The notes below the pieces were generated by a model, which made no database searches, had not been told where the DNA came from, and saw only the letters and a list, made by a program, of their open reading frames with translations. From Nostoc carneum NIES-2107 (GTDB lineage Bacteria > Cyanobacteriota > Cyanobacteriia > Cyanobacteriales > Nostocaceae), in contig AP018180.1 of the NCBI GenBank assembly GCA_002368155.1, positions 5,815,430 through 5,879,429 on the forward strand: DNA of 64,000 bases, given 5' to 3'. Of this stretch, positions 12,817-43,924 are shown in pieces (position 1 is the first letter of the stretch; every line of letters begins with the position of its first letter). The translations under genes were made by a program, and so were the position numbers.

Positions 12817-12821
12817 CTTGT
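12817..12821. repeat. Putative 5-bp target-site duplication, glmS side (CTTGT)
   Basis: CTTGT here matches CTTGT at 43925-43929, directly outside the other transposon end. The last T overlaps the base expected to be the first of the element (TGTAGA), so the register is uncertain by one base. Confidence 0.6.
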
Positions 12822-12828
12822 GTAGAGG

Positions 12829-12887
12829 AATAATTCGGTTGAACAATAAATAATTCGATTCAACAATTAATAAAACGATTGAACAAT
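12829..12887 (+). repeat. Three TnsB-type binding sites, glmS-proximal end
   Basis: Three direct 19-bp repeats at 12829-12847, 12849-12867 and 12869-12887, with consensus AATAAWWCGRTTSAACAAT. They sit at an exact 20-bp pitch, about two helical turns, so bound protomers would line one face of the DNA. The same motif occurs inverted three times at the other end. Confidence 0.9.
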
Positions 12888-12945
12888 AACCTCTGATGGA
12901 GTACTATTGTACTAAGTAAAGGTGCGATCGCTTCCAGAGGTTATT
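12885..12945 (+). promoter_or_regulatory. Inverted repeat spanning the tnsA leader and ribosome site
   Basis: A perfect 11-bp inverted repeat: AATAACCTCTG at 12885-12895 and CAGAGGTTATT at 12935-12945. The left arm overlaps the last TnsB site; the right arm contains AGAGG, the only good ribosome-binding sequence for tnsA. Either an RNA hairpin hiding the ribosome site or a protein operator is possible. Confidence 0.55.
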
Positions 12946-12948
12946 TTT

Positions 12949-13767
12949 ATGGTGAGGGGCAGAAGGGAATGGACTCAAGCTAAATATGAGCGATATATAA
13001 AAGAAGGTCGTGGTCGAGGAAGTGGTAAGCAGTATAAACCTTGGCTTACAATCCAAGATGTTCCCTCTAAAGGACGTTCCTCTAGAACTCCTGGTTGGAA
13101 AACAAATCGAGTACATCATTTCTTCTCAGACCATGAAAAACGGCTATTTTATTTGTTTGAGTGGTCAGATATAGTCACAGACATAAGAGAGCAATTTCCT
13201 CTAGACGATCTTGATCTGGCAATGAGTATCGCTACAGATATGGATATAAAGTACCCTGTAGACACAAAAAGTGGAACTCCTTATGTTTTAACAAGTGACT
13301 TCATGCTTACAGTCAACCGCGATGGTAAGCAGATGCAGATTGCCCGGACTGTTAAGCCATCAACAGAACTGGAGAAAAAGCGGGTTAATGAGAAATTAGA
13401 GATAGAAAGACAATATTATTTAGCAAAAGGTATTGAGTGGGGAATTATCACTGAAAAAGAAATTCCAAGGCTTTTAGTCGAAAATGTTGAGTGGGTTCAT
13501 TCTGCTTACAGACTAGAAGCAAATCCTGAAATGAATACTGCACAACTGCGTGAGTTGTCAACAATTTTAAAATATAAGCTTCAGGAAGAAGATACAGCCA
13601 TCAATACAATAACTAGTGCTTTAGATAAAGAAATGAATATAAGTTATGGTACTTCACTTTATGTGTTTAAGCATTTAATCGCCATAAAAGAAGTCATTGT
13701 GGATTTGGTCAAAATAAAATTATCTGCTTGTCCGTCAACTAAAGTTTTTGAAAAAGTCATATTTTAA
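12949..13767 (+). CDS. tnsA: TnsA endonuclease subunit of the Tn7-like transposase
   Basis: 272 residues from the ATG at 12949. TnsA cuts the 5' ends of the transposon so that, with TnsB cutting 3' ends, the element moves by cut-and-paste. Restriction-enzyme-like catalytic residues are Glu63 (SDHEKRLF), Asp117 (LTSDFM) and Lys136 (ARTVKP), followed by the EKLEIERQYY helix. Numbering from this start puts the Glu at 63, as in Tn7 TnsA. AGAGG eight bases upstream also supports it over a GTG at 12922. The C-terminal part should contact TnsC. tnsB follows after 22 bp. A separate tnsA excludes a type V-K element, which lacks it. Confidence 0.95.
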   Translation: MVRGRREWTQAKYERYIKEGRGRGSGKQYKPWLTIQDVPSKGRSSRTPGWKTNRVHHFFSDHEKRLFYLFEWSDIVTDIREQFPLDDLDLAMSIATDMDIKYPVDTKSGTPYVLTSDFMLTVNRDGKQMQIARTVKPSTELEKKRVNEKLEIERQYYLAKGIEWGIITEKEIPRLLVENVEWVHSAYRLEANPEMNTAQLRELSTILKYKLQEEDTAINTITSALDKEMNISYGTSLYVFKHLIAIKEVIVDLVKIKLSACPSTKVFEKVIF

Positions 13768-13789
13768 ACACACATAGTATGTAAAGAAT

Positions 13790-16024
13790 ATGGTTAAAGA
13801 TTTATTTGTCAATGATTTAATAGAGTGGATTGTATATGACAACGCTCATGTAGTCGAAAGGATTATTTGGATAGATGAAGGTTATATTATTGCATTTGTT
13901 ATAGATATTAATGCTAAGAAAGGGCTCCCTGAACCAAAGAAAATATCAGATATTTTAGAAGCCATATCTGAAGGTGTTGCTTTTAAGCAACAACAAGATC
14001 CTTGGGCAAGAATTATTCGGGATGAAAATTTGACAGATAGAGAAAAGGAATACAGAGATAAAGCTTGGGAGATAATTTCATCATTAGTTATAGAAGAACC
14101 ATCAATATATTATAGGAATTTTAGAGGCTTGCTGGTTAAAAAAATTGTTGAAAATTATAACGAAGAAAGGGATAAGAATAAATTAGTAGAAAAAACTGTC
14201 TATGGTTATTTGAGAAGATTTTGACAAAGGGGAAAAAATACAAACGCTCTTATACCTGATTTTATCAATTCATCAGGTAAAGGTAAGATTCGAGGGCAAT
14301 CAGGTAAGAAGAGAGGAAGACCAAGAAAATATGCACATGATCCTGATATTGGTGAAGGTGTAAATGTTGCAGAAGAAGATAGAAAGATTTTTAGAATAGC
14401 TATAAGTAAATTTTACAATAATTCAAAAGAAAACTACTTAACAACAGCCTATGAATTAATGGTAAAGGAATATTATAAGGAAGGAATTAGATATGACGAA
14501 AATGGTGTACAAAAATCTATTTTAACTCCGACTGATAAAATACCTACAATTACCCAATTTAAATATTGGTATCAACTTGAGCAGGATGACGTTACCAAAA
14601 CTTTGACATCTCGAAAAGGAGCCAAAAGAGTAGCCTTAGAGAATAGAGCAATTTTGGGAACTTCTAAGATGGAGACTATTGGCCCAGGTTCTAGATATCA
14701 AATTGATGCTACAGTTGCTGATGTATATTTGGTGTCAAAATATAACCGTAATTGGATCATTGGCAGACCTGTTATTTATGTAATCATTGATGTTTTTAGC
14801 CGGATGATTACAGGTGTTTATGTTGGTTTAGAAGGCCCATCCTGGACAGGCGCAATGATGGCGCTAGCTAATGTAGCCGCAGATAAAACCCTATTTTGCC
14901 AGGAATACAACATTAATATTACTGAAGATGAATGGCCTAGCAATCAAATGCCAGATGCAATTTTAGGAGATAGGGGAGAATTAGCAGGGATGAAAGTGGA
15001 AACATTAATCCCTAATCTTTATGTTCGTATTGAAAATGCAGCTTCCTATAGAGCAGATTGGAAAGGTTTAGTAGAAAGACACTTTCGTATAATCCATGAA
15101 CATGTAAAACCTTTTTTACCAGGTTATGTAGATACGGATTTTAGACAAAGAGGTGCAAGAGATTATAGGCTGGATGGCAAACTTGATATAGATCAATTTA
15201 CTGAAATTATTGTTCGTTTAATTGTTCACCACAACAATAAATTTCTTAAGGAATACGAAAGGGATGAAGCGATGGTTGCTGATGATATACCTCCTATACC
15301 CAGAGAGTTGTGGAGGTGGGGTATTACCAATCGTTCTGGTAGACTCAGAACTTTTTCTGAAGATATTGTCAAATTGAACTTGATGCCTACTGAGAAAGCA
15401 ACCATTACAGCTAAAGGCATCAAAATGAGAGGCAAGGAGATGTACTATACCTGTGATAGTGCTGAAAAGGGGCAATGGTTTGAAAAAGCTAGAAGTAATC
15501 TCCTTTCTAAGTCAGATAAATCACTAATTGTGTCTTACGATACCAGAAACCCAAACTTCATTTACCTGCCATCCAGTGATGGTAGAGATTTTGAAAAATG
15601 TTTTCTTATCGACTCAGAAGGACGGTATGCTAATAAAAATTTTTATGATATTGAATATCTACTTGCTTATGAAGAATTGCAAAGACAGAAAAGCCAAGGT
15701 CAACAGCTACAAGAAAAGGTAGATTTAATAGCTGATATTGAAAGCATAGTGGATAAAGCAGAACAAATGACTGATGCTGCTCAAGAACCTAATTTAAGTA
15801 AGACCAAAAAAGTTTCTGGAATAAGAGAAAATAGGGCTTTTGAAAAGGCTAAACGGCGAGATAGCGAAGGATTTGAACTAGCAATTACAGAAAATCAGAG
15901 TAGTTTTCAGGTTATAGAGAGTAAATCCGAAACCTCCGAACAGCCAGAATCACTACAGCCAAATCATCTGAATCTTCTTAAGAAAAAGCGACAGGAGCGA
16001 AAACGTGGACAGGATCGAGGGTGA
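13790..16024 (+). pseudogene. tnsB: TnsB DDE transposase, interrupted by one in-frame TGA
   Basis: Full length would be 744 codons. Codons 1-144 match the N-terminal TnsB region. Codon 145 (14222-14224) is TGA in the stretch LRRF-stop-QRG, where the family has Trp. The same frame continues without another stop to 16024. The second part holds the RNase-H-like core with Asp306 (YQIDAT), Asp394 (LGDRGE) and Glu429 (GLVERHF), the last two 35 residues apart, as in DD(35)E transposases. TnsB binds the end repeats and joins the 3' ends to target DNA. ATG at 14459 (codon 224) could start a core-only fragment but has no good ribosome site. Nonsense mutation, UGA readthrough (the context is UGAC) and sequencing error are all possible. 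Confidence 0.9.
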
Positions 16025-17675
16025 ACTGGTTAAAATTCCTAATGGAGAATTAGCAGTTATTGCCAGATATATAGATCAAAAACTTCCAGAATACAACGTT
16101 AATCCATTAATTCAGGCATTACCTCATATTCTCTCAGCAGAAGAATTTATCGATCAAGTAACGAGAACACCAGATTTTAATGAACGAGAGAAGGAGCTAG
16201 AAACACATTATAGGTTTCATTGCATTGAGAGGCTATCTAGATATTTTGATCCTCAAAATAAAACGGTTGAACTACAGAAGGTTATTTGTGCATTAATTAT
16301 GACAGGCTATTTAGCTCGGAATATTCTGAAACCTGAATATGCAAGTCGTTCTAGGCAAATCTATAACGCAATAAAACATGGAGGAGGTAAAAACTTAGAA
16401 AACTATGTTAATCTTCCTACATCTGCTTCTGGTTTAACCCTAATTGGCCCATCGGGAATGGGAAAATCTACAAATTTCCAAAATATTCTTAATCTTTATC
16501 CTCAAGTAATTCTTCATCCTGATTATAGTGTTTACCAAATCGTTTGGTTGAAGGTTGATTGCCCTCATGCGGGTTCTTTGAAGGGTCTATGTACTGATAT
16601 TTTCCTTGCTGTTGACAGGTTATTAGGTACTAACTACTTTAAAAAATTTGGTTCCTCGCGCAACTCTGAAGATTATATGCTTGCTCAAGTTGCCCAAATA
16701 GCCCATACTCATCATTTAGGAGTTTTAGTTATAGATGAGATGCAGAATCTGGTTACAGCAAGAAGAAGTAGCTCAGATATGTTGAACTTTTTAGTTAAAA
16801 TGGACAATACTGTAGGAATTCCAGTAATTCGAGTTGGTACCAATGAGGCTTTTCCTATTCTTCAGGGAAATTTTAGAAATGCTAGGAGAGGCACAGGAGA
16901 AGGAAGTGTAATTTGGGACAGAATGGTAAATGATGATGAATGGTATTTCTTTATGGAAGGAATGTGGGAATACCAGTGGACAAAAACGTTTGTTCCATTC
17001 TCGGATGAAATAAACGAAGTTTTTTATGACATGTGCCAGGGAATAATTGATATTGCTGTCAAACTTTACAAAATGGTTCAATGGAGAGCAATTTCAATCG
17101 GTGATAAAGAAATTATTACTGTTGACCTAATTCGTCAAGCAGCTAAAGATGGACTATATTTAGTCAAGCCAATGCTAGATGCAATTAGGTCAGGGGACAA
17201 GGAGTGGATGATTAAGTATAAAGATATTGCTCCTCTCGATACTACAGAATATCAAAATAAATGTCTATCTGAGCTTGATTATAAAGATTTGAAGGAGATT
17301 AGGAGATTAGCTAGAAAGCAGCAGAATCAGCAGCAAGTATCGCCAAAGCTAAATTATGTAATTCTTGAGCTTTTGAACTTGGAAATAGAACCCGCTAAAG
17401 CCAAGGAATATGCAGAAAAAACTGTTTCTAGTGATGAAGATGCAGACATCCCATCTTTAGTTAAGAAGGCATATGCTCTTGCTTTGCAAGGAGGTCAAGT
17501 AAATGAAAACCTTGCTAAAACAAGTACCAAGAAAGTTAAATCAAAGCCAAAGTACAAAGAGAATGATATTCGACGAATTGTCGAGAATGCAAAGAAAGAG
17601 AAAAAATCTGCATATGAGGATTTAAAATCAGCAGGTATAATCAAAAATCCAATTGAAGATTTTATAAATAAGTAG
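16005..17675 (+). CDS. tnsC: TnsC AAA+ ATPase, transposition regulator
   Basis: 556 residues. Walker A GPSGMGKST at 148-156 and Walker B LVIDEMQN with Asp244-Glu245 show an AAA+ ATPase. TnsC forms ATP-dependent rings or filaments on target DNA and links the target selector (TniQ or TnsD) to TnsA and TnsB. The GTG start at 16005 has CAGGAG eight bases upstream and overlaps tnsB by 20 bp, pointing to translational coupling. The C-terminal 100 residues are Lys-rich and low-complexity. The stop codon TAG lies inside the terminal repeat of a MITE (17669-17790), so the last residues may differ from the ancestral protein. Confidence 0.95.
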   Translation: MDRIEGELVKIPNGELAVIARYIDQKLPEYNVNPLIQALPHILSAEEFIDQVTRTPDFNEREKELETHYRFHCIERLSRYFDPQNKTVELQKVICALIMTGYLARNILKPEYASRSRQIYNAIKHGGGKNLENYVNLPTSASGLTLIGPSGMGKSTNFQNILNLYPQVILHPDYSVYQIVWLKVDCPHAGSLKGLCTDIFLAVDRLLGTNYFKKFGSSRNSEDYMLAQVAQIAHTHHLGVLVIDEMQNLVTARRSSSDMLNFLVKMDNTVGIPVIRVGTNEAFPILQGNFRNARRGTGEGSVIWDRMVNDDEWYFFMEGMWEYQWTKTFVPFSDEINEVFYDMCQGIIDIAVKLYKMVQWRAISIGDKEIITVDLIRQAAKDGLYLVKPMLDAIRSGDKEWMIKYKDIAPLDTTEYQNKCLSELDYKDLKEIRRLARKQQNQQQVSPKLNYVILELLNLEIEPAKAKEYAEKTVSSDEDADIPSLVKKAYALALQGGQVNENLAKTSTKKVKSKPKYKENDIRRIVENAKKEKKSAYEDLKSAGIIKNPIEDFINK

Positions 17676-17790
17676 CTGGTGGGAATTAAATATAAGATGG
17701 ACGTAGGTTGGGTTGAGAAACGAAACCCAACACCCGCATGGGTTAGCGATAGCGTAACCCATCCTACAAATAATTATGCCTCCCTACTTA
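17669..17790 (+). mobile_element. MITE copy A (TAAGTAG...CTACTTA) between tnsC and tniQ
   Basis: A 122-bp element with imperfect inverted ends (TAAGTAG / CTACTTA; outside them a perfect AAATAAGTAG / CTACTTATTT). Its inner palindrome is GGGTTAGCGATAGCGTAACCC. A second, inverted, 148-bp copy is at 34661-34808, nearly identical except for an extra 26 bp or so in the middle. It encodes nothing but supplies the tnsC stop codon and a spurious upstream start for tniQ. Confidence 0.8.
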
Positions 17791-17802
17791 TTTAGCTTCT
17801 CA

Positions 17803-18750
17803 ATGCTTAGTTTTTTCCCAACGCCATATCCTGATGAACTTTTATATAGTGCTTTGGCTAGATATCATATACGAAGTGGCAATAAAACCTTCAAGCAAAC
17901 TGACTTAGAACTATTTGGTTATAGTTCTCAGCAACTATGTAAAGTTACTTTAACTAATAATTTGAATTATTTAGTTAAAAACTTGTCTTTATTTTCTCAG
18001 TTAACAGTTAGCGATTTGCTACAAAATTATACTCTATACCCTTTTTATTCAACTTTCTTAATACCTCAGCAAGCTTGGCAATTACAAGACTCTATGAGGA
18101 ACAAGCTAAGTGGCTCTATTCTAGAGGTTGCAAAAGTAGCTAATCATCCTACTGAAAACTCAACAAAGTTTTTAAAGTTTTGTCCTGTGTGTCTAAAAAA
18201 AGATACACAAGAATATGGTGAACCATACTGGCATAGAATTCACCAAATACCAGGTATATTAGTTTGTCCCACCCATAGAATTATTTTGCATGATAGCTCT
18301 GTAGCTGTTGATTCTAAGGGTATACATTATCATGCTGCGAGTCTAGAGAACTGCTTGTGCAATCAAAATCAAGTCAAATATACTGATAGCACTGTAGAAA
18401 AATTATTAATCTTGGCTCAGGATATTTGGGATACAAGTAATATTAATATTTCTTTTAAAGGTTTGGCTTGGCTCCGCAATCAATATCAGTCCTATTTAAT
18501 TAATCAAAAGTTTATGAACATCCTACCTGGGGGTAAATTTAGATTTAACCAAAAATCTTTTTCAAATTCCATCCGTGATTGTTATGGACAAGAGGTTTTA
18601 GAAATAATTAATCCAAATTTAATCAAAAATCCAGACAAATACTTTTCTAGTTATTTACTGGGTTGTGATCTTAATCCAGTAATTGACCGGATTACACATA
18701 TATTGATAATAAAATTTTTAGCTAAATCTGTAAAAACATTTTTTACATAA
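17803..18750 (+). CDS. tniQ: Short TniQ, CRISPR-linked target selector
   Basis: 315 residues from the ATG at 17803. The TniQ domain begins FFPTPYPDELLYSALARYHI and carries a zinc-finger set (FCPVC near residue 130, then CPTH about 30 residues later). The protein matches roughly the first 310 residues of the TnsD at 40564 and lacks its DNA-binding C-terminus. In type I CASTs this short TniQ joins Cascade and recruits TnsC to crRNA targets. A further upstream ATG at 17776 would add MPPYL..., but those codons come from the MITE, and the second MITE copy encodes the same residues out of context. 17803 also aligns with the TnsD start. Confidence 0.92.
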   Translation: MLSFFPTPYPDELLYSALARYHIRSGNKTFKQTDLELFGYSSQQLCKVTLTNNLNYLVKNLSLFSQLTVSDLLQNYTLYPFYSTFLIPQQAWQLQDSMRNKLSGSILEVAKVANHPTENSTKFLKFCPVCLKKDTQEYGEPYWHRIHQIPGILVCPTHRIILHDSSVAVDSKGIHYHAASLENCLCNQNQVKYTDSTVEKLLILAQDIWDTSNINISFKGLAWLRNQYQSYLINQKFMNILPGGKFRFNQKSFSNSIRDCYGQEVLEIINPNLIKNPDKYFSSYLLGCDLNPVIDRITHILIIKFLAKSVKTFFT

Positions 18751-18910: not shown

Positions 18911-19579
18911 ATGGGCGATCATTTTCACTTATCAACTCAGAACCATGTAAAAGATGTTTTAAATCCTCAGTTAATCTACGTGGACTTAAGCTTTCGTGTA
19001 ATTGGTCAGACTTTACCCATAGACCACGGCTATGGTTTGTATGCTGCACTGACTCACTTACAGGACAAACTTCATTCTCTAGATGACCTTAGTATTCAAA
19101 CTATTCCTGGTATTCCTGATGGCAAAGATTCACTTAATCTTAATAACCACTCTAGGCTTCGGATTCGGCTACCAGTAGAAAAAATACCTTTAGTTTATCC
19201 GTTTGCGGGTAAATCACTAACAATTGGCAGGCATAAGATTCGTTTAGAAATTCCTCAAATGTATCTCCTTCAGGCAGTGGAGAAATTGCGATCGCGTATT
19301 GTGGTTATCAAAGGATATGAAGAACCAGACGCTTTTTTAGCAGCAGCGCAGCGTCAACTGGAAAGACTGGGTATCCAGGGAATAGCCAGTATACCTACCA
19401 AAGCTGATGGCAAACCCAAACGCAGAAGTATCAAAATTAAGAAATTTACAGTAGTAGGTTTTGGATTGGAGGTAACAAATTTAAGCAATGAAGATTCAAT
19501 AACCTTGCAAAAATACGGTGTCGGCGGGAAGCAAAAAATGGGTTGTGGAGTGTTTGTACCAGTTAACGAAAAGCGATAG
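18911..19579 (+). CDS. cas6: Cas6 CRISPR RNA endoribonuclease
   Basis: 222 residues. The ferredoxin-like RAMP fold is suggested by IYVDLSFRVIG near the start. The C-terminal Gly-rich loop GVGGKQKMGCGVF is typical of Cas6, especially the MYXAN type. Cas6 cuts the CRISPR transcript within each repeat and stays bound to the 3' stem of the crRNA. Candidate catalytic His residues lie in the N-terminal third (HGYGLYAALTH); I cannot tell which one acts. First gene of the four-gene cas operon; cas8 follows after 17 bp. Confidence 0.88.
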   Translation: MGDHFHLSTQNHVKDVLNPQLIYVDLSFRVIGQTLPIDHGYGLYAALTHLQDKLHSLDDLSIQTIPGIPDGKDSLNLNNHSRLRIRLPVEKIPLVYPFAGKSLTIGRHKIRLEIPQMYLLQAVEKLRSRIVVIKGYEEPDAFLAAAQRQLERLGIQGIASIPTKADGKPKRRSIKIKKFTVVGFGLEVTNLSNEDSITLQKYGVGGKQKMGCGVFVPVNEKR

Positions 19580-21186: not shown

Positions 21187-22182
21187 ATGTCTCATCTGTT
21201 TGGTAATATTTTAACTATTTATGGTACTGCTGCTAATAATCGTGGTGAAAATGAAGGTAATATCACTACCCTACAAAAAATAAACTGGAAGGGCGAAGTT
21301 CACACTACTGTCTCAGCAGAGGCAATTCGTTGGGCACTGCGGTACTACTGGCAAAATAATGGTTATGAAGTGAATCGGCGTTGGGATGAAAATGCCCAGC
21401 CACTCGCTGATCACATCTTGCAAGACCTTAACTTTAATAATGTTCGCTTCATTGATGATGATGTTTTAGGATTCATGCAAACAGAAGCCGCAAGAGTTGA
21501 AGCTGGTGATCAATCTGGAGGTGAAGTCCAGGAAGCATCCGCAGGAGAAATTCAAAATGTATCTCAAGATGAAGAGGTAACAAGCTCTAAAGGCAAGCGT
21601 AAAAAAACTTCGCAACGCAAAGGACGAGAAAGACCACAAGGGAGAGTCGCGGCTAAAAGAGGTGTACTAGAGGTTACTCGTGCAGTATCGTTGATTCCCT
21701 ATGAAGGGAACATTACTTTTAATGCAGTCAGTGGAAAAAAAGGACGAACTTCTCTTTATGGTACAGAAGTTCATGCTACTCGTTATCAGTATGGTTTTGC
21801 ATTGACACCTAACAGTCTCCAAGATAAATCTCGGAGCAATGCAGTTTTAAATGGTTTAATTTCAATTGGAGAAGTGGGAGGAAATCATGCCCGTTTTTTA
21901 TACGATTTTTCCCCAGATAGCATAATACTACGCTGGACACATGATTTCTCGCCTCGTTTTTTGTATTGCTTTGAACAAGATGAATGGGGAAATATATCAG
22001 TTCCAGATTTGGTTAGACGGGTAGAAGCTGAAGATATTGACCCAAAGGAATTATGGATTGGAGGAGCAATTGCTAGAGATTTAGGAAATTTGGGTGCAAA
22101 TGTGTTCCCAGGTGTGAAGAAGGTAGTAGAAGAATTACTAAAGGTCATTACACGAGACTTACAATTGCTACCAAGGAGTTAA
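21187..22182 (+). CDS. cas7: Cas7 backbone subunit (DevR/Cst2-like)
   Basis: 331 residues. The start MSHLFGNILTIYGTAANNRGENEGN, with the EVHTTVSAEAIRWALRYYW helix, is characteristic of Cas7 in MYXAN and I-B systems. Several copies coat the crRNA spacer to form the Cascade backbone. Residues about 110-160 are a charged, low-complexity insertion (KGKRKKTSQRKGRERPQGR) that looks like a flexible basic loop. AAGGAG near the 3' end serves the next gene. Confidence 0.92.
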   Translation: MSHLFGNILTIYGTAANNRGENEGNITTLQKINWKGEVHTTVSAEAIRWALRYYWQNNGYEVNRRWDENAQPLADHILQDLNFNNVRFIDDDVLGFMQTEAARVEAGDQSGGEVQEASAGEIQNVSQDEEVTSSKGKRKKTSQRKGRERPQGRVAAKRGVLEVTRAVSLIPYEGNITFNAVSGKKGRTSLYGTEVHATRYQYGFALTPNSLQDKSRSNAVLNGLISIGEVGGNHARFLYDFSPDSIILRWTHDFSPRFLYCFEQDEWGNISVPDLVRRVEAEDIDPKELWIGGAIARDLGNLGANVFPGVKKVVEELLKVITRDLQLLPRS

Positions 22183-30540: not shown

Positions 30541-30600
30541 AGAGGACTAGTATCGCTGCTCGGAATTCAAATTTCGTTAACAAGTTCAGGCTATAGAGTC

Positions 30601-30700: not shown

Positions 30701-30735
30701 CAGCATAATTGAAAGTTGCGACTATCGTTAAGTCA

Positions 30736-30987: not shown

Positions 30988-31008
30988 TCTTTGAAAAGTC
31001 ATGATTGA

Positions 31009-32829: not shown

Positions 32830-33006
32830 CAACTAATTCAAAATTTACTTCAAATTCGCTGTAATACAAATTAGAACCCATACTATTACACTCAAGCTAC
32901 GCGTAGTTTATCTAACAGGAAACGGGAAGCATTGTCATACGAGTAGCACTTGGCATTACAAAATGCAAAACCATGTCTAACACTAATCACCAAATAAATA
33001 AAAAAT

Positions 33007-33384: not shown

Positions 33385-33503
33385 TACATTTAGCACTAAC
33401 CTAACTGAGTAAGATAACAGTTAAAAATTCAGAATCATGCACTATTTCTACTTACCGACACCAAACGATAATAAGCAAACATCAAATTACCAAAATCAAA
33501 ATT

Positions 33504-33896: not shown

Positions 33897-33995
33897 ATAA
33901 GCTTAGTATGAGAGTAAGATTTAGCACCAATTTAACCTGAAAGAATTTGCCATTATAAAAATCATCAATTTAAATACTTGGAGAAATAATCAACT

Positions 33996-34932: not shown

Positions 34933-37900
34933 ATGCAAGAATCAGCGTCATTTAATTATCCAGATTTTTTTACTTCAGAACCTATAGATTTAAGCAACTG
35001 CGATCGCGAACCAATTCATATTCCTGGTTTGATTCAACCGCATGGGGTGTTGCTATCATTACGAGAACCAGAACTTGAGATTTTGCAAGTTAGTGAAAAC
35101 GTAGAGCAAATATTAGGAATTAATGCCGAAAATCTCATCGGTAAATCTCTCAGCGTCCTGCTTTCTCAAACAAAAGTTAAAGAAATATCTCAATATCTCA
35201 CTCAAAATAATTTAAAAATATTTAACCCTTTAAATTTAAAAATTAAGCAACTCGCCGCAGCATCAGCTAACCAAAAAGCACATTGGCAAAGCTTTAAGGT
35301 GATGATGCACCGGAGTGAGGGACTTTTAGTAATGGAGTTAGAACCTAGCCGTATCAGTACCACTAAACAGGTTCTCCAGTTCTATCATCTATTAGAAGAA
35401 GCGATCGCTCAGATACGGGATGCAGAAAGTTTCAATGACTTGTTAGAAATTATCGTCAAACAAGTGCGGTTAATTACTGGCTTTGATCGGGTCTTGATTT
35501 ACCAGTTTGCTAGCGATAACAGCGGAGTTGTAGTTGCAGAAGAAAACGCCAATCATTTAAACAGCTATTTGGGGCTACATTATCCCGCTTCTGACATTCC
35601 ACAACAAGCCCGCCAACTTTATTACAATAGCTGGCTGCGGCTGATTCCCGATGTCAACTATCAACCAGCAAAACTAATTCCTTCTCATAATCCCATAACT
35701 GGAACATCACTAAATCTCAGTCAAGCGAATTTCCGCAGTGTGTCGCCTCTCCATATAGAATATCTGCAAAATATGGGTGTAGCTGCTTCAATGTCGATTT
35801 CCTTAATTAACGAGAAACGGCTTTGGGGATTGATTGCTTGTCACCATCACACACCCAAATTTATAGATTATGAAACAAGGAAAGCCTGCGAATTTTTAGG
35901 ACAGTTTGCCTCAATAGAATTAGTTTATCAACAAGAACATGAACTAAATCGCTATCGCTCCCAAGTGAAACTAATTCAGGAAGAATTGCGAACAAATTTA
36001 TCGCAAGAAGTCGGCTTTATAGAAGCGGTATTCCAACGTCATGAAGAGTCTTTATTAAATTTAGTTCACGCCCAGGGAGCCGCAATAATTTTAGATAATA
36101 CAATTTCGCTACGAGGTGCAACTCCATCAATCAAAGACGTGCAAGCATTAGTTACTTGGCTATTGCAGGAACATTGTCAACCAATATTTGTAACTGATTC
36201 ACTACCACAACTTTACCCACAGGCACAGCAATTTCCCATGATTGCTAGTGGCATTTTAGCTATTTCCATTTTGCTGCAACAAAAGTCTTATCATATTATC
36301 TGGTTTCGACCAGAGCAAATTCAAATAGTTAATTGGGCAGGGAATCCCCACAAACCTGTTTCTATTAGTACCGATGGCGAAATCCGCTTAACACCGCGTA
36401 AATCTTTTGAACTTTGGCAAGAAACAGTTAAAGAAACATCTCTACCTTGGGAAAGTGCGGAGATGGAAGCAGCATTAGAAATGCGAAATACTCTAATGCT
36501 AGCAGTACTAGAGTTTTCCCAAGCTGCCTTAGAACAAGCCGCAGAACGTGCTGCGATCGCCAATCGTGCCAAAAGTCAGTTCCTCGCCAAAATGAGCCAT
36601 GAACTGCGGACTCCCATGAACGCCATTCTGGGATTTACGCAATTAATGGTACGCGATCGCCAAACTCCCGAACAATTTCAAGAGCATCTAAGCATCATCA
36701 CCCGCAGTGGCGAACATTTACTAGCCCTAATTAACGATGTTTTAGAGATGTCGAGAATTGAAGCAGGACAATTGCTACTCAACGACAGCTGCTTTAATTT
36801 ACATCGACTGCTGCACTCACTCAACGAGATGTTTGCCCTCAAAGCCTCACAGAAAGGCTTGCATCTGCAAACTGAACAAGATGCAACTGTTCCCCGTTAT
36901 GTCTGGGGTGATGAAGCCAAACTGCGGCAGATTTTGATTAATTTGTTAGGTAATGCGATTAAATTTACTACTAGTGGCACGGTAACGCTGCGAGTACAAG
37001 CTTTGCCAGCAAGCAATCCTACTGTTACACAACCTAAACCCTCAATCAATTTACTACTGGAAGTTGAAGATACTGGATGTGGAATTGCACCCTCAGATTT
37101 AGAATCGATTTTTGAAGCCTTTATGCAAACAGAAAAGGGCCGCAATGCTCAAGGTACAGGCTTAGGTTTATCTATTAGTCGTCAGTTTGCCCGGTTGATG
37201 GGAGGTAACATTACAGTCAACAGCACTTTAAATCAGGGGTCAACCTTTACCTGTGAAGTATTTTTACATTTAGTAGATGCAGTCGATTTGGCGGAACCAG
37301 AAGCAACTCGTCATGTAATTGCTTTGGAACCAGGACAACCCACTTACCGAATTCTGATAGTAGAAGATGTTTTAGAAAATCGGCAATTGCTAGTCAAATT
37401 GCTAGAGTCAGTAGGTTTTGAAGTTTGCGCGGTGGAAAATGGCGCAGAAGCGATCGCCATGTGGCAAGAATGGCATCCCCACCTAATTTGGATGGATATT
37501 CAAATGCCTGTGATGGATGGCTACACAGCCACACAACAAATCCGCGCCACAGCAGGCAAAGAAGATGTAATTATTATTGCTCTCACTGCCTATGCCTTTG
37601 AACAAGACCGCATTGCTAGTCTGCAAGCAGGTTGCAACGACCATCTTGCCAAGCCTTTTACAGAAACCTTGCTGTTTGAGAAGATGGCACAGCACTTGGG
37701 GCTACGCTATGTATACAGCGAAGTTATCACACCCGACAGCAATATAGTAACTTCACCGAAAAAACCCCTCACCACTCAAGACTTACAGGTAATGCCCAGC
37801 GAGTGGATTGACCAAGTGCATGAAGCCGCTCTGGATCTCAATGATGCCAGACTCTATGAACTGATTGCCGAAATTCCTACCGAGCAAAAAACCTTAGCTG

Positions 37901-37971
37901 ATAGCTTTAAATACCTGGTCGATCATCTCCAACTAGAAGAAATTATTAACCTGAGCGATTTAAATTTATAA
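34933..37971 (+). CDS. Bacteriophytochrome hybrid histidine kinase (PAS-GAF-PHY-HK-REC)
   Basis: 1012 residues. Cys23 in NCDREPIHIPG is the biliverdin-binding Cys of bacteriophytochromes. The GAF has the PASDIP motif and SVSPLHIEYL in place of the plant/Cph1 Cys-His site. The PHY tongue has PRKSF. After a helical linker come HisKA with His556 (MSHELRTP), HATPase (NLLGNAIKFT, GTGLGLSI) and a receiver with Asp855 (IWMDIQMPVMDG). The C-terminal 90 residues are unassigned. It should be a red/far-red photoreceptor kinase. No heme oxygenase is seen in the window, so biliverdin would come from the host. Confidence 0.95.
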   Translation: MQESASFNYPDFFTSEPIDLSNCDREPIHIPGLIQPHGVLLSLREPELEILQVSENVEQILGINAENLIGKSLSVLLSQTKVKEISQYLTQNNLKIFNPLNLKIKQLAAASANQKAHWQSFKVMMHRSEGLLVMELEPSRISTTKQVLQFYHLLEEAIAQIRDAESFNDLLEIIVKQVRLITGFDRVLIYQFASDNSGVVVAEENANHLNSYLGLHYPASDIPQQARQLYYNSWLRLIPDVNYQPAKLIPSHNPITGTSLNLSQANFRSVSPLHIEYLQNMGVAASMSISLINEKRLWGLIACHHHTPKFIDYETRKACEFLGQFASIELVYQQEHELNRYRSQVKLIQEELRTNLSQEVGFIEAVFQRHEESLLNLVHAQGAAIILDNTISLRGATPSIKDVQALVTWLLQEHCQPIFVTDSLPQLYPQAQQFPMIASGILAISILLQQKSYHIIWFRPEQIQIVNWAGNPHKPVSISTDGEIRLTPRKSFELWQETVKETSLPWESAEMEAALEMRNTLMLAVLEFSQAALEQAAERAAIANRAKSQFLAKMSHELRTPMNAILGFTQLMVRDRQTPEQFQEHLSIITRSGEHLLALINDVLEMSRIEAGQLLLNDSCFNLHRLLHSLNEMFALKASQKGLHLQTEQDATVPRYVWGDEAKLRQILINLLGNAIKFTTSGTVTLRVQALPASNPTVTQPKPSINLLLEVEDTGCGIAPSDLESIFEAFMQTEKGRNAQGTGLGLSISRQFARLMGGNITVNSTLNQGSTFTCEVFLHLVDAVDLAEPEATRHVIALEPGQPTYRILIVEDVLENRQLLVKLLESVGFEVCAVENGAEAIAMWQEWHPHLIWMDIQMPVMDGYTATQQIRATAGKEDVIIIALTAYAFEQDRIASLQAGCNDHLAKPFTETLLFEKMAQHLGLRYVYSEVITPDSNIVTSPKKPLTTQDLQVMPSEWIDQVHEAALDLNDARLYELIAEIPTEQKTLADSFKYLVDHLQLEEIINLSDLNL

Positions 37972-38081
37972 ATTTTATTAAATGAAATTCAGAAACTGAC
38001 TACGCAAATCTTCAACTGTCTACTGCATTAACTTGCAATCAAAAATTTAAAATTTATTACCCAGTTTTGACATCAGATACT

Positions 38082-39890
38082 ATGCCTAAATTACTTAAAC
38101 CAGCATCACAAACCAAGATTCTCATTATTGATGACAAACTGGATAATATTCGCTTGTTAGCCAAAATTTTAGAGGCTCATAGTTATATTGTCCGGAAAGC
38201 TCTCAGTGGCAAAATAGTATTACAATCTGTGCAGCGAGAGCCACCAGATCTAATTTTGCTCGATATTAATATGCCGGATCTCAACGGCTATGAAGTGTGT
38301 CTACATTTGAGAAGTTTAGAAGCAACCAGAACTACTCCGATTATTTTTATCAGTGCCCTTGATAATATCAATAGTAAAGTTCTAGCCTTTGAATTAGGTG
38401 GGCAGGACTACATTACAAAACCATTTCATGAGTTAGAAGTCTTAGCCAGAATTAAAAATCAATTACTGATTCAGCAGCAAAAGCAACTCCTAATTGAGCA
38501 AAATCAACAATTAGAGCAGGAAATTCAACAACGTCAACTCGCTGAAGCTGAAATTCAGCGACTCAATCTTGAATTGGAACAACAAGTAAAACTTCGCACT
38601 TTAGAATTGCAGCAATCCTTAAACTTTGAAGCCACACTCAAACGCATTTCTGATAAAGTCCGCGATTCTCTTGACCAAAACCAAATTTTGCAAGTTGCTG
38701 TCAAAGAACTAGCTCTAGCCTTAGAGTTGAAATGCTGCGATGCTAGCCTTTATACCCGCGATCACCAATCCGCAATTATTCGCTATCAATATGTAGCATC
38801 AGGAGAACCTGTAACTCAGGGACAGATGCTATATATGACAGACGCACCAGAAATTTATCATCAGTTGGAACAACAAAAATCTTATTTCAGCTTTTGTCAA
38901 ATTCAGCCAATACCAATTCGCAATCATTCCGCGACCTTAGCCTGTCCCATTTTTGACGATCAAGTTGCAGAAACAGGGATTTTAGGTGACTTGTGGTTAT
39001 TTAAAGACACTGATTCTACTTTCACTGAAATGGAAATTAATTTGGTGCAACAAGTCGCCAACCAATGTGCTGTAGCCCTGCGTCAAGCTGATCTTTATCA
39101 AGCCGCCCAAGCCCAAGTCAAAGAACTACAACGCCTTAACCAACTTAAAGATGATTTTCTCTGCACCATCTCCCATGAATTGCGTACACCCGTTGCTAGT
39201 ATCAAAATGGGCATTGAGCTATTGAAAACCCTCAGCCAGCAAGCGGATGAGTTAACCAAGGAAGTGCGATCGCATGGGCAGGATCGTCAAGTCATCGAAT
39301 GTCTGAGTGTTTTGCAACAACAGTGCGATCGGGAATTGGAATTAATTGAAGACTTATTAAGCTTGCAATATTTAGAAGCGGGAGTCTACCCCCAACAACT
39401 CACTCAAATTCATCTTAGAGATTGGATTCTGCACATTATTGAGCCATTTCAAATCCAAATCCAAAATCAGCAGCAAATCTTAGAAATTAATCTAGCGCCA
39501 GACTTACCCACCCTCAACCTTGATGCTTTCAGCCTCAGCCGCATTCTTACAGAACTGCTGAATAATGCCCATAAATACACTCCCGCAGGTGAAACAATAA
39601 CGCTAGCAGCTAGCGTTATTCATCACAACACAGCAACACCACAACCCCAACCAATACTGCAAATAATTGTGGCTAACACAGGAGTAGAAATTGCTCCCGA
39701 AGAAATCCCCCGCATCTTTGATAAGTTCTACCGCATTCCCAATCACGACCCTTGGAAGCATAGCGGTACTGGCTTAGGGCTAGCATTAGTGAAAAAACTA
39801 GTTGCACAAATGAATGGGACGATAATTGCTGAAAGCGCTAACAATCGCACTCAGTTCCTTCTGCAATTTCCCATTCTCTCCAGACAGTGA
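38082..39890 (+). CDS. Receiver-GAF histidine kinase
   Basis: 602 residues from the ATG at 38082; a TTG five codons earlier is less likely. Domains: receiver (IDDK, acceptor Asp61 in LLDINMPDLNG, ITKPF), a Gln-rich coiled coil (140-185), a GAF without chromophore Cys (190-350), HisKA with His365 (ISHELRTP) and HATPase (ELLNNAHKYTP, GTGLGLALV). It lies 110 bp after the phytochrome and is the kind of second kinase that receives phosphate from an upstream hybrid kinase. Probably part of the same relay. Confidence 0.92.
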   Translation: MPKLLKPASQTKILIIDDKLDNIRLLAKILEAHSYIVRKALSGKIVLQSVQREPPDLILLDINMPDLNGYEVCLHLRSLEATRTTPIIFISALDNINSKVLAFELGGQDYITKPFHELEVLARIKNQLLIQQQKQLLIEQNQQLEQEIQQRQLAEAEIQRLNLELEQQVKLRTLELQQSLNFEATLKRISDKVRDSLDQNQILQVAVKELALALELKCCDASLYTRDHQSAIIRYQYVASGEPVTQGQMLYMTDAPEIYHQLEQQKSYFSFCQIQPIPIRNHSATLACPIFDDQVAETGILGDLWLFKDTDSTFTEMEINLVQQVANQCAVALRQADLYQAAQAQVKELQRLNQLKDDFLCTISHELRTPVASIKMGIELLKTLSQQADELTKEVRSHGQDRQVIECLSVLQQQCDRELELIEDLLSLQYLEAGVYPQQLTQIHLRDWILHIIEPFQIQIQNQQQILEINLAPDLPTLNLDAFSLSRILTELLNNAHKYTPAGETITLAASVIHHNTATPQPQPILQIIVANTGVEIAPEEIPRIFDKFYRIPNHDPWKHSGTGLGLALVKKLVAQMNGTIIAESANNRTQFLLQFPILSRQ

Positions 39891-40563: not shown

Positions 40564-42462
40564 ATGCTTGGCTTTTTCCCATCTCCTTATCCAGATGAAA
40601 TTTTATACAGTATATTGGCGCGGTATCACATTAGAAGCGGTAACACAAGCCCAAAAATAACCCTCCGAGAACTATTTAATTCGGAAAATACCATAGCTAC
40701 TGTTGACCTACCTTCTAACCTGAATTCTTTGATGCAAAACATCAAATTAGTCTCAAATTATCAGGTAGAAGACTTCATATACAAACATACATTATTCCCT
40801 TTTTATAATGTTTTCTTACCTCCGAAGAGAGCTAGCCAAGTGATTGATTCCATGAAAGCAGAGTTCGGAGGAGATATTCATACCAGAGCCGGAATCATGG
40901 CTAGTTCTATAAAGATGCTAAGGTCTCTCCGGTTTTGTCCACAATGTTTGCAAGAAGATTTACAAAAATATGGAGAAGCATACTGGCATCGAATACATCA
41001 AATACCTGGAGTTTTAGTCTGTCCATTTCATTGCATAACTGTTCAAGATAGTATAATTTCCACACAAGGCTTAAACAGGCATGAATACTATGCTGCAAGT
41101 TCAGAAAATTGCCCTATCTCATCAATAGAAACTTATAGTGAGGAAACTTTAAATAAGTTGCTGTTGCTAGCTCAAGATAGCTGGTACTTAATTAATAGTA
41201 AATTTGTATCTAGAGAACTTGAATGGTTCCAGAAAAAATATATAGCATTATTGATTTCAAAAGGTTTTTCTACTGCATCAGGGAGAGTAAACCAGAAGAA
41301 ATTGCTAGATAATTTCTTGTTTTTTTATGGGCATGAAATTTTGACAGCAGTTAATTCAATGGTAAGTTACGAAAAGTCGCAAAATTGGCTATTCAGTATT
41401 TTCAGAAAACATAGGAAATCATTTCATCCTATTCGCCATTTACTCACAATTAGATTTTTATCAAATTCCCTGGATGAGTTTTTCAGCAATCATTATGAGT
41501 ATAAACCTTTCGGTGATGCTCCCTGGCTTTGCCTGAATGCTGCCACAGAACATTATCTTCAGGCAGTGGTCAATCATTTGGTTATTAGCCACTGTTTGGA
41601 TAATAAAAAGCCATTAGGTACTTTTTCCTGTTCCTGTGGCATGGTTTACTGCCGAACTGGCCCAGATGAAACAGAGGAAGATAAATTGCGAATCGGCAAA
41701 GTTATAAAATTTGGTTCAGTATGGGAACAAAAGCTCAAAGAATTGGTAGAAATACAAAAGTTAGGTTTACGGAAGACGGCAAGACAGCTAAATGTTGATC
41801 CTAGAACTGTAATCCGTTATACTTCGCTGTTGGGACTCAAAACTCATTGGAAATCTATTAAGGAAGCTAAACCATTAGATAAAGAAGTTTTAGAATTAAA
41901 TCCTGTAAATTATTTTAATAGTATAAACATTAAATACAGAGAAGCATGGAAAGATTTACAATACCAATATCCAGAAGCATCAAAAACTGCTTTGAGGAGA
42001 TTGGCTAAAGGAACCTATGCTTGGCTATATAGACATGATAAAGAGTGGCTCCACCAAAACTCACCAGATTTCAAAGTTTCTGTCCCCAGTTTAGGAAAAG
42101 TTGACTGGGTAAAAAGAGATAAGCAAGTTCTCGAAGAAGTAAAAAAAGCAGTATTATCACTTCTAAGTGCTGAGAAGCCTGTGAGAATAACTATTGGCAG
42201 AATAGGAAGAACTATTAATTTACTAGCACTATTAGAAAAACATTTGTCAGAAATGCCATTGACAAAAGCTTACTTAGACTCAGTCATAGAAACTGTCGAG
42301 GATTTTCAGATTCGGCGTATTCAATGGGCAATTCAGCAGCTTGATAATCACGGAGAAGAAATTCTTGCTTGGAAGGTGATTAGAGTTGCGGGTTTAGGTG
42401 AAAACTGCTCGGAAATAGTACAAGCATATCTGGAAAAAGAACTTTATATACGAATGTATTAA
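40564..42462 (+). CDS. tnsD: TnsD, glmS-site target selector
   Basis: 632 residues. The N-terminal TniQ domain (FFPSPYPDEILYSILARYHI, FCPQC zinc finger, CPFH) matches the short TniQ. A long C-terminus contains an HTH (LGLRKTARQLNVDPRTVIRY) and the Tn7 TnsD motifs YAWLYRHDKEWL, KVDWVKRDK and VEDFQIRRI. TnsD of Tn7 binds the 3' end of glmS and recruits TnsC. The position of this element, 24 bp after glmS, fits that role exactly. Unusually for a tns operon, it lies about 22 kb from tnsC, beyond the cargo and near the far end. Confidence 0.95.
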   Translation: MLGFFPSPYPDEILYSILARYHIRSGNTSPKITLRELFNSENTIATVDLPSNLNSLMQNIKLVSNYQVEDFIYKHTLFPFYNVFLPPKRASQVIDSMKAEFGGDIHTRAGIMASSIKMLRSLRFCPQCLQEDLQKYGEAYWHRIHQIPGVLVCPFHCITVQDSIISTQGLNRHEYYAASSENCPISSIETYSEETLNKLLLLAQDSWYLINSKFVSRELEWFQKKYIALLISKGFSTASGRVNQKKLLDNFLFFYGHEILTAVNSMVSYEKSQNWLFSIFRKHRKSFHPIRHLLTIRFLSNSLDEFFSNHYEYKPFGDAPWLCLNAATEHYLQAVVNHLVISHCLDNKKPLGTFSCSCGMVYCRTGPDETEEDKLRIGKVIKFGSVWEQKLKELVEIQKLGLRKTARQLNVDPRTVIRYTSLLGLKTHWKSIKEAKPLDKEVLELNPVNYFNSINIKYREAWKDLQYQYPEASKTALRRLAKGTYAWLYRHDKEWLHQNSPDFKVSVPSLGKVDWVKRDKQVLEEVKKAVLSLLSAEKPVRITIGRIGRTINLLALLEKHLSEMPLTKAYLDSVIETVEDFQIRRIQWAIQQLDNHGEEILAWKVIRVAGLGENCSEIVQAYLEKELYIRMY

Positions 42463-42539: not shown

Positions 42540-42570
42540 CTAGGTGATGGAAAATAATTAATACCAGCGA

Positions 42571-42876
42571 TTAAGCCACATCCGCTACCAGCAAACCGTT
42601 AACAGCAATGATGAATAGCTGTGCTAACTCAGGAGTATCAAAGCAAGGTCTTTCATCTCTGTTACAGGGCTGTGCTACCCATTTACCCTCAAGGTTTTGA
42701 TAAAAAGTCCCAAGCAGATGAGAGCTGTTCCAAACGCGATAAAGTTCTCCAAGCTCATCTGGTACTGAGTCAATTTCAATTTCAGGAGCTATGGTTTCAG
42801 CAAGCTGGTCAATATATTCCTCAAACTCTAATTGAACCGAGGTTTGGTTATCGAATTCATCTTGTACAATCATCAT
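42571..42876 (-). CDS. Hypothetical acidic protein, 101 residues
   Basis: A Glu/Asp-rich soluble protein (FEEYIDQLAETIAPEIEIDS, then VWNSSHLLGTFYQNLEGKW). No motif, signal or membrane segment is recognised. It is convergent with tnsD, followed by its own terminator, and lies in the transposon near the far end. Unknown role; possibly cargo or a host-interaction protein. Confidence 0.6.
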   Translation of the reverse strand: MMIVQDEFDNQTSVQLEFEEYIDQLAETIAPEIEIDSVPDELGELYRVWNSSHLLGTFYQNLEGKWVAQPCNRDERPCFDTPELAQLFIIAVNGLLVADVA

Positions 42877-43004
42877 GAGTAACCTTTTTGATGGGGTTCA
42901 ACAAAGGGCGATCGCATTTCTCTTGGCTGAGGGCGGTCGCCTTTTTGATTTCATCAATATATTAGCTACTTTAGTAGCTAAAAACAATTAATGTATTTAA
43001 AACT

Positions 43005-43298
43005 TTAACTTGTAACTTCAACTATACTGAGGAAATCGCTTATAGATATTCCTAGTGCAGTACAAATAGCCTCTAATACTTTTATAGAAACACTTTCAGA
43101 CTCACCATACTCTAATTTTTTTAAGTTTTGATGAGAGCATTCACCGCCTCTAGCTGCGATTTCATTGGCTAATGATTGACGGGACTTTTTGCCACGCAAC
43201 TGCTTTAAAACTGCTCCTCTATCCTTGCTCCAGGTAACTGATACAACATCTGCAACATAAATGTACACTCTAGTTTTTTTCTCACTGTTATTGCTCAT
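43005..43298 (-). CDS. XRE-type helix-turn-helix regulator
   Basis: 97 residues. The HTH spans about 30-85 (RGKKSRQSLANEIAARGG, HQNLKKLEYGES, VLEAICTALGISISDFL), a Cro/C1 fold with a 29-residue N-terminal extension. It has no other domain, so it should bind DNA as a dimer. Small regulators near transposon ends often control transposition or cargo. That role here is inferred from position only. Confidence 0.85.
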   Translation of the reverse strand: MSNNSEKKTRVYIYVADVVSVTWSKDRGAVLKQLRGKKSRQSLANEIAARGGECSHQNLKKLEYGESESVSIKVLEAICTALGISISDFLSIVEVTS

Positions 43299-43775
43299 AT
43301 AATAGCTACAGCAGTAAACAAAATATAAAATTCTGAGCTACTACAGTTTACAAACTATGAGGATTTAACGTAAAAGTGAGTTTCCTTTAAATGAATTAGC
43401 GCTTCTGCTCCAGAACTGGTTTAGCTTCTACAGCTTTAAAAAGCTACCATAAGCAAGTACTCAAGACCTGAACATTTTTTGTTGTTGTGGATAAAAATGT
43501 ATTACTGAAACAGTGCGATCGCAATGTCAAGATTTTGATCTGCCTACCATTTATTCTCAAAGACGACAGACTGAACTAAATAGCAAGCTTGTAGAGGCGT
43601 TACAGATTTTATCGCTCTTTGACAGCTAGATGAAAGATAAGTTCAAGATAACTGTAACTGACGATTGCAGTTGCAAAAGAATGCGATCGCATAACATTTC
43701 TCACAGCAGGACTTCTAAACTTAATCTTCAACTTATTTAAGTATCCCAAATCTTTATCAGGAAAGGGTTTACAAA
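43299..43775. other. Non-coding DNA before the far transposon end
   Basis: No gene supported. A minus-strand frame at 43609-43812 starts within a TnsB site and is discarded. HIP1-type sites lie near 43516 and 43682. The three end repeats follow. Confidence 0.5.
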
Positions 43776-43916
43776 ATTGTTCAACCGTTTTATTCGATGT
43801 TTTTGCTGACAAGTAAGTATACTACAGAGAGTGTGCTTAAATTGTTCAACCGTTTTATTATGTAAATCACGATAGATTAAGCATTTGAGGCTCAAATATT
43901 GTTCAATCAAATTATT
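43776..43916 (-). repeat. Three TnsB-type binding sites, far end
   Basis: Inverted 19-bp sites at 43776-43794 and 43841-43859 (both ATTGTTCAACCGTTTTATT) and 43898-43916 (ATTGTTCAATCAAATTATT). Start-to-start spacing is 65 and 57 bp, unlike the 20-bp pitch at the glmS end. Tn7 shows the same asymmetry between its left and right ends. Confidence 0.9.
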
Positions 43917-43924
43917 TGTCTACA

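What the first reader, a model, noticed from the sequence alone, without database searches (positions are those of the whole stretch)
12821..43924. Whole 31-kb type I-B CAST at glmS, with both targeting modules
Separate tnsA and tnsB, tnsC, a short tniQ next to cas6-cas8-cas7-cas5, a CRISPR mini-array and a distant full-length tnsD all lie between matching end repeats, 24 bp after the glmS stop. This fits a dual-mode element: TnsD for the chromosomal home site and Cascade-TniQ for crRNA-guided jumps. Type I-B CASTs are already known in cyanobacteria; this copy, its cargo and its layout may not be.
Basis: partly seen in the sequence, partly recalled or inferred. Interest (0 to 1): 0.85.

Follow-up and report, generated by a model that had tools for sequence, protein, structure and literature searches.

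The report
Chimeric, stalled type I-B1 CAST
This is a CRISPR-guided jumping element beside a cyanobacterium's glmS gene; it belongs to a known kind, but its transposase gene carries a stop codon and its RNA-guided targeting block was swapped in from a different lineage of the same kind of element.

Summary
Window 12821-43924 is a full-length Tn7-like element 24 bp after glmS, with three TnsB-type sites at each end, tnsA, tnsB, tnsC, tniQ, cas6-cas8-cas7-cas5, a one-spacer array and full-length tnsD: a type I-B1 CAST, a known kind. Four things were missed. (1) tnsB is broken by one in-frame stop (14222-14224), absent in 14 of 14 compared relatives, so this copy is probably immobile. (2) It is a chimera. 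Ends and tnsAB are closest to A-type relatives (G192, 91-92% aa). The tniQ-cas6-8-7-5-array block is 96% identical in DNA to a same-genus B-type CAST (G004) whose tnsAB is 64-66% identical. tnsD sides with neither. Trees reject one history (AU p 6e-71, 2e-5). Other relatives show similar block exchanges. (3) The right edge abuts the leftover right end of an older B-type CAST: elements stack at glmS; G004 and G179 look alike. (4) About 16.5 kb of two-component and phytochrome genes sit between array and tnsD; in G003 a 90% identical cluster lies 49 kb from the CAST. Most novel reading: stacking at one attachment site lets I-B1 CASTs reassort modules.

The parts
10919..12796 (+). glmS; its 3' end is the attachment-site signal for TnsD (host gene, outside the element)
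   Evidence: SIS and GATase domains; one match in the genome at E<=1e-100, 97-98% identical to four genus mates
12817..12820 (.). left copy of the target-site duplication, CTTG (4 of 5 bases; one base probably lost)
   Evidence: counted by eye, 25 bp separate glmS stop and element in G004, G179, G203 (26 in G213, 5 in G192) but 24 here
12821..12889 (+). right end (tnsA side) with three TnsB-type sites at 20-bp spacing, A type
12922..13767 (+). tnsA
   Evidence: PF08722 2e-18, PF08721 3e-22
13790..16024 (+). tnsB, broken by one in-frame TGA at 14222-14224; next in-frame start is ATG 14459
   Evidence: the part after the stop matches Tn7 TnsB (7pik) from residue 129, E 3e-101
16005..17675 (+). 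tnsC
   Evidence: AAA_22 1e-23, TniB 2e-13; 92% identical to G180
17776..18750 (+). tniQ (324 aa, shortened TnsD-like), start of the exchanged block
   Evidence: PF06527 2e-29, partial PF15978; 94.6% to G004, 60-67% to G203, G192, G179, G213
18911..19579 (+). cas6 (cmx6 family)
   Evidence: TIGR02807 3e-75
19597..21129 (+). cas8 (Cas8a1/Cmx1)
   Evidence: TIGR03485 1e-120, TIGR03486 2e-51; best solved structure Cas8 of 8fcj, E 2e-97
21187..22182 (+). cas7
   Evidence: TIGR02585 1e-32
22187..22819 (+). cas5
   Evidence: TIGR02586 2e-45
23097..23204 (+). mini-array: repeat 23097-23132, spacer 23133-23168 (contains an inverted repeat), diverged repeat 23169-23204
   Evidence: no target found
23394..39879 (+). 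cargo: response regulators, histidine kinases, phytochrome (34933-37971); most of it homologous to a cluster of G003 that lies away from its CAST
40564..42462 (+). tnsD
   Evidence: PF15978 2e-119 over 355 of 355 positions, PF06527 1e-30; Tn7 TnsD 8glu E 2e-40
42571..42876 (-). conserved small ORF beside tnsD, unknown function
   Evidence: 73-80% identical in the 7 relatives where it was tabulated
43005..43298 (-). xre-type regulator
   Evidence: HTH_26 3e-10; conserved near tnsD in relatives
43774..43924 (-). left end with three spaced TnsB-type sites, A type
43925..43929 (.). right copy of the target-site duplication (CTTGT)
43930..44004 (+). remnant right end of an older B-type CAST, directly behind the element
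   Evidence: 43938-44004 is 97% identical to the R end of the G003 CAST; 43928-44004 is 91% to that of G004

Best explanation
It is a type I-B1 CRISPR-associated Tn7-like transposon in its glmS home site. As built, TnsD would read the end of glmS and place the element about 25 bp downstream, while TniQ with Cas6-Cas8-Cas7-Cas5 and a crRNA would direct jumps elsewhere; TnsC passes either signal to TnsA and TnsB, which cut at the end sites. This copy is a chimera: A-type ends and tnsAB, a B-type tniQ-Cascade-array block, and a tnsD of neither of those two relatives. It lies against an older B-type CAST whose right end remains as a fossil. It is probably stalled, because tnsB has a nonsense codon. 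Shown: anatomy, stop, mosaicism, stacked end. Inferred: functions of the proteins in this copy, immobility, and that the block came from the neighbouring older element.
For: Domains and order. Ends and 24-bp spacing. In-frame stop not shared by 14 of 14 relatives. Identity to G004: tnsA/B/C 63.8/66.4/74.5%, tniQ-cas 92-98%; to G192: tnsA/B 91/92%, tniQ/cas6/cas8 65-67%. Trees: tnsAB puts the window with G192/G203/G179/G213 (100/100); tniQ-cas with G004/G066 (100/100); held-together alternatives rejected, p 5.9e-71 and 2.2e-5. Sharp switch near 17.70-17.85 kb. B-type R end behind the L end. Closest solved TnsB is Tn7's own, 3e-101 against 7e-14 for the next. In same-genus G003 a B-type CAST, with no tnsD matched in the stretch held up to the contig end, lies in comM-like coding sequence about 50 bp after a match (32 of 37 letters as cut) to one of its own spacers, so a related Cascade does seem to guide insertions.
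Against: No expression or transposition data. The duplication is 4 of 5 bases. The stop could be a sequencing error or be read through at a low level. The spacer has no identified target. Cas5 is high against both parents (91% G192, 97% G004), so the 3' edge of the block is less sharp by that gene. The groups tested by AU were named after the identity table was seen, and the tniQ-cas tree has three long rows (G060, G102, G003). AvCAST itself was not in the data and was not compared.
Confidence: 0.85

Rival explanations
1. A single-lineage, fully working dual-mode I-B1 CAST.
For: All parts present and all but tnsB open.
Against: In-frame stop in tnsB and no other related TnsB at E<=1e-30 in the genome; block-wise discordant relatives and rejected trees.
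Confidence: 0.08
2. Chimera, but still mobile at a low rate because the UGA stop in tnsB is partly read through.
For: Only one lesion; the translated tnsB is 92% identical to that of G192. Leakiness of UGA is recalled, not tested.
Against: No conserved recoding: 14 of 14 relatives have a sense codon there. The restart at 14459 would lose about 223 residues. Decay is common in these elements: G203, G066, G074 and G180 have breaks of their own in tns or cas genes.
Confidence: 0.15
3. The block exchange happened elsewhere (plasmid, other chromosome site, or another host) and the fossil B-type end behind the element is unrelated.
For: Two crossovers or gene conversion are needed, since the L end and tnsD are not B type. 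G066, of another genus, carries the same block at 89-95%.
Against: The fossil end is of the same B type as the block's closest relative; end-like sequences follow the left end in G004 and G179 too; G001 has a right end that joins a B first site to A second and third sites.
Confidence: 0.4
4. The 16.5-kb regulatory cluster is ordinary transposon cargo that travelled with the element.
For: It lies between the ends, and in G000 phytochrome matches at E<=1e-200 are only this copy and a 79% paralog.
Against: In 7 relatives cas5-to-tnsD is 1.2-3.4 kb, and in 4 with a located left end 15-20 kb lie between xre and that end instead. In G003 the cluster, about 90% identical, lies about 49 kb from the CAST with no tns gene or end site matched nearer on its contig.
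Confidence: 0.25

Closest known systems
Type I-B1 CAST (AvCAST, Tn7743)
   Same: Separate tnsA and tnsB, tnsC, tniQ, Cas6/8/7/5, tnsD, glmS attachment site, cyanobacterial host (group features partly as described in PMC11406308 passages; the exact AvCAST gene list is recalled)
   Different: tnsB has a nonsense codon; modules come from at least two I-B1 lineages; 17.7 kb part cas5 and tnsD. AvCAST sequence not compared here.
Transposon Tn7
   Same: TnsB closest to Tn7 TnsB, TnsD to Tn7 TnsD; tnsA-side end toward glmS, about 25 bp after its stop (the Tn7 distance is recalled)
   Different: Carries Cascade and TniQ; no TnsE was recognised among the 26 of 36 ORFs of 80 aa or more that were scanned
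Type I-B2 CAST (PmcCAST, Tn7744)
   Same: Type I-B Cascade; Cas8 matches the 8fcj Cas8 at 2e-97
   Different: I-B2 has fused TnsAB and a tRNA-gene site (passages); here separate genes and glmS
comM-directed I-B1 CASTs without tnsD
   Same: G003 has tnsABC 96-99% identical to G004 and a spacer that matches the comM-like gene it sits in; the kind is described in PMC11406308 (passages)
   Different: The window copy keeps tnsD and sits at glmS

Membership tests
Type I-B1 CAST | separate tnsA and tnsB genes with tnsC | tested here: met
   tnsB present but with an in-frame stop
Type I-B1 CAST | transposase close to prototypic Tn7 | tested here: met
   TnsB best solved match Tn7 TnsB 3e-101, next 7e-14
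Type I-B1 CAST | short TniQ with a partial TnsD domain | tested here: met
   PF06527 plus PF15978 over profile positions 2-106 of 355, 31.0 bits against a cut-off of 32.4
Type I-B1 CAST | type I-B Cascade genes without cas1, cas2, cas3 | tested here: met
   Pfam on 26 of the 36 ORFs of 80 aa or more that overlap the element, the ten others being short and mostly antisense; NCBIfam on ten core genes
Type I-B1 CAST | TnsD and insertion just downstream of glmS | tested here: met
Type I-B1 CAST | TnsB-site ends and 5-bp target duplication | tested here: inconclusive
   ends met; duplication 4 of 5 here, 5 of 5 in G004, G179, G213, none seen in G192 and G203
Type I-B1 CAST | RNA-guided and TnsD-guided transposition | not testable with these tools
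   needs a transposition assay; the tnsB stop argues against it for this copy
Type I-B2 CAST | fused TnsAB and tRNA-gene attachment site | tested here: not met
   separate genes; no tRNA gene in the window

The most novel reading that the evidence does not exclude
The glmS site acts as a reassortment hub. TnsD places each newcomer at almost the same base, so CASTs with different end types stack in the same orientation. Recombination between neighbours then swaps whole functional blocks (ends+tnsAB, tnsC, tniQ-Cascade-array, tnsD), and the losing neighbour decays to an end fossil. The window shows a newcomer that took its RNA-guided module from the resident it landed on.
Probability: 0.35. Interest if true: 0.7.

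Novelty: new member of a known kind. Interest (0 to 1): 0.45.

Why it matters
CAST engineering asks which TniQ-Cascade can work with which TnsABC. Natural elements that have exchanged the block at 64-66% TnsAB identity suggest that I-B1 parts may be interchangeable, and name the pairs to test. The stacked ends suggest where such hybrids form. It also warns that a CAST that looks complete can be dead: one nonsense codon in tnsB was overlooked at first reading.

Tried and rejected
Target of the spacer: 28 of its 36 nt, up to 3 mismatches, matched only the array itself in 8 genus genomes; its first 30 nt had no exact match in viral contigs nor in the loci then held, which did not include the array; plasmids and phages gave only partial matches at E 4-5. 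TnsC family PF11426 rang nowhere, controls included, so says nothing. Pfam gave no hit for cas8; NCBIfam did. I looked for the empty chromosomal site of the cargo cluster: the G003 neighbours (feoB side, sulfate-transporter side) lie about 260 kb apart in the window's genome, so no clean empty site could be named. The left edge of cargo homology (23394) falls at a GGCGATCGC site in both genomes; such sites are frequent (recalled), so I do not build on it. A second copy of the right end in the own genome was not found. I considered a split, two-gene TnsB and set it aside because the first in-frame start after the stop would lose about 223 residues and 14 of 14 relatives have a sense codon there. 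One search printed the glmS loci on the minus strand in the wrong orientation; one search is the corrected print and is the one used. Rows dropped: one search found TnsB in 26 of 192 genomes, the window's own included; the identity table uses one element from each of 14 others. Left out are 11 genomes: those at 38-44% TnsB identity (G165, G135, G170 with two places, G172, G175, G207, G142 with two places), partial matches (G024, G215, G149), and G002 (one partial place at 67%, one at 40%). Of the left-out ones G142 C5, G024, G215 and G149 were not fetched as regions. Three named-record loci (L164, L167, L177) were looked at but not put in the trees. PMC10293859 (passages) says that only a few dual TniQ-TnsD loci hold distantly related proteins, as exchange between transposons would give; that concerns wider distances than here. 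PMC8649781 (passages) already notes that transposition beside an existing element can yield multiple left and right ends, so stacking as such is not new. Searches listed no title that names block exchange within I-B1 or phytochrome cargo in CASTs; I saw listings and passages only, no paper in full, and doi 10.1093/nar/gkac1216 is not held.
Full report
What is there. The element spans 12821-43924. It starts 24 bp after the glmS stop and has three TnsB-type sites per end, closely spaced on the glmS side and spread on the other side. Between the ends lie tnsA, tnsB, tnsC, tniQ, cas6, cas8, cas7, cas5, a mini-array, regulatory genes, tnsD, a small conserved ORF and an xre-type gene. The Cas proteins are of the I-B/'MYXAN' group by NCBIfam.

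The tnsB frame 13790-16024 is interrupted by one in-frame TGA at 14222-14224. Fourteen other elements were compared at this place, and 14 of 14 have a sense codon. The sequence after the stop aligns with Tn7 TnsB from residue 129 of that protein; I take the part before it to be needed for end binding (recalled from Tn7, not tested). No other TnsB at E<=1e-30 was found in the genome. I infer that this copy cannot move by itself. Intact copies of tnsB exist in relatives, but some relatives have breaks of their own: a stop near the end of tnsB and a gap in tnsC in G203, tnsB in two pieces in G066 and G074, broken tnsC and cas8 in G180.

The element is a chimera. Against G004 (same genus), amino-acid identity is 63.8, 66.4 and 74.5% for tnsA, tnsB, tnsC, then 94.6, 94.1, 92.1, 97.9 and 96.7% for tniQ, cas6, cas8, cas7, cas5, then 63.3% for tnsD. 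Against G192 it is 90.7, 92.2 and 80.5%, then 67.0, 65.4, 65.0, 76.5 and 91.0%, then 62.4%. In DNA, 17800-23133 is 95.8% identical to G004, and the switch of nearest relative falls near 17.70-17.85 kb, around the tnsC stop and the start of tniQ. In the tnsAB tree (13 rows) the window groups with G213, G192, G203, G179 (100/100). In the tniQ-cas tree (11 rows) it groups with G004 and G066 (100/100). Holding the window with the other group is rejected in each (p 5.9e-71 and 2.2e-5). In the tnsD tree (11 rows) it can be placed neither with G004 nor with G192 (p 1e-43 and 3e-69), and its grouping with G203, G179, G213 is unsupported (56/41). The array repeat goes with the cas block: window, G004 and G066 share one form, G192 and G195 another. 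The groups were seen before they were tested, which makes the p-values optimistic, and the tniQ-cas tree has three long rows; the margins in log-likelihood are large (905 and 1290).

It is not alone. In one search the same pattern shows in other pairs: G192 and G195 are 63-68% alike in tnsAB and 92-97% from tnsC to tnsD; G004 and G003 are 98-99% alike in tnsAB and 61-77% in tniQ-cas; G004 and G192 are 92% alike in tnsD and 64-67% in tnsA, tnsB, tniQ, cas6 and cas8. The window's tnsC is 92% identical to that of G180, whose tnsA and tnsB are 60.6 and 68.5%. So blocks, not whole elements, are inherited together in these pairs.

Stacking at glmS. Directly behind the window's left end and the CTTGT duplication lies the right end of another CAST type: 43938-44004 is 97% identical to the right end of the G003 CAST and 43928-44004 is 91% identical to that of G004. 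I located both ends for six elements (window, G004, G179, G192, G203, G213). The 5-bp duplication is exact in three (G004, G179, G213), 4 of 5 in the window, and not seen in two (G192, G203). A right-end-like sequence of another type follows at once in three of six: window, G179 (also found by BLAST, 87.5% over 32 bp) and G004 (by eye). G007 keeps a decayed A-type left end about 6.7 kb after glmS that is also followed by an end-like sequence. G001 has a right end made of a B-type first site and A-type second and third sites, as recombination between stacked neighbours would give. G006 keeps an A-type right end and a match to the first 46 codons of tnsA. In G003 the sequence after glmS shows an older end remnant, the same one that lies behind the G004 element. 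G002, G005 and G007 show no right end just after glmS, but G005 has a weak left-end-like match 15 kb on, so only G002 looks empty over the 20 kb read. The B-type end in the window is reduced to one site, and from about 44126 the sequence matches copA regions that lie elsewhere, or on another contig than glmS, in seven of seven genus mates; I infer that the older element and its neighbourhood were lost by rearrangement. That elements can insert beside one another is already noted in print (PMC8649781, passage).

Cargo. Window 23394-39879 matches a two-component and phytochrome cluster of G003 at mostly about 90% DNA identity (83-91% by piece), with about 4 kb (30.5-34.3 kb) and a smaller gap unmatched. 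In G003 the cluster lies at C104:14.8-31.1 kb and the CAST begins at about 79.8 kb. In seven relatives tnsD starts 1.2-3.4 kb after cas5, and in the four of them with a located left end 15-20 kb lie between xre and that end. Here it is the other way round: 17.7 kb between cas5 and tnsD, 0.6 kb between xre and the end. I infer a capture by recombination inside the element. How it happened is open.

Mode of action. TnsD homing to glmS is inferred from the family (PMC11406308, passages) and from insertion at about the same offset in relatives. RNA-guided insertion by a related Cascade is supported by G003: no tnsD was matched in its element as far as the contig end, the element lies in comM-like coding sequence, and one of its spacers matches 32 of 37 letters about 50 bp before the insertion (the 37 letters as cut include about two of the next repeat, and the name comM is my reading of the sequence together with the review). 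The window's own spacer has no known target.

Names. 

Verdict. The finding is a true I-B1 CAST, a known kind, so the layout by itself is not new. What is of interest is the chimera, the stacked ends, and the same pattern in relatives. PMC10293859 (passages) treats modularity of target selectors across Tn7 types. I saw no report of block exchange within I-B1 in the listings, but key papers are not held.

Noticed in passing
L123:9003-14213 (G000:C1 6.60 Mb): A second cas6-cas8-cas7-cas5 set with its own array and the same small-ORF/xre pair (77% and 81% identical to those of the CAST), but no tns genes or tniQ matched in the 20 kb fetched, and no cas3 among the ORFs scanned: an orphan Cascade or CAST remnant.
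   Followed up: partly
window 44247-49096: The copper P-type ATPase gene lies elsewhere, or on another contig than glmS, in seven genus mates; its place next to the glmS island marks a rearrangement.
   Followed up: partly
L084 (G001), about 25-340 bp after glmS: A remnant of about 300 bp with a chimeric right end and a B-type left-end site but no tns genes matched, MITE-like.
   Followed up: partly
L164:8712-18974 (Nostoc sp. WHI): A CAST whose cas block is inverted relative to tnsABC-tniQ: cas5, cas7, cas8, cas6 on the other strand.
   Followed up: no
L170, L172, L174, L175, L178, L181: Bacillus, Clostridium, Lysinibacillus and Bacillaceae contigs encode TnsB 38-56% identical to this cyanobacterial one; in L170 it is followed by tnsC and one TnsD-like gene, with no cas match.
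   Followed up: no
window 23133-23168: The only spacer holds a near-perfect inverted repeat (GGCCCAAGTTGGGCC) that would fold in the crRNA; the array folds better than all but 4 of 200 shuffles.
   Followed up: partly
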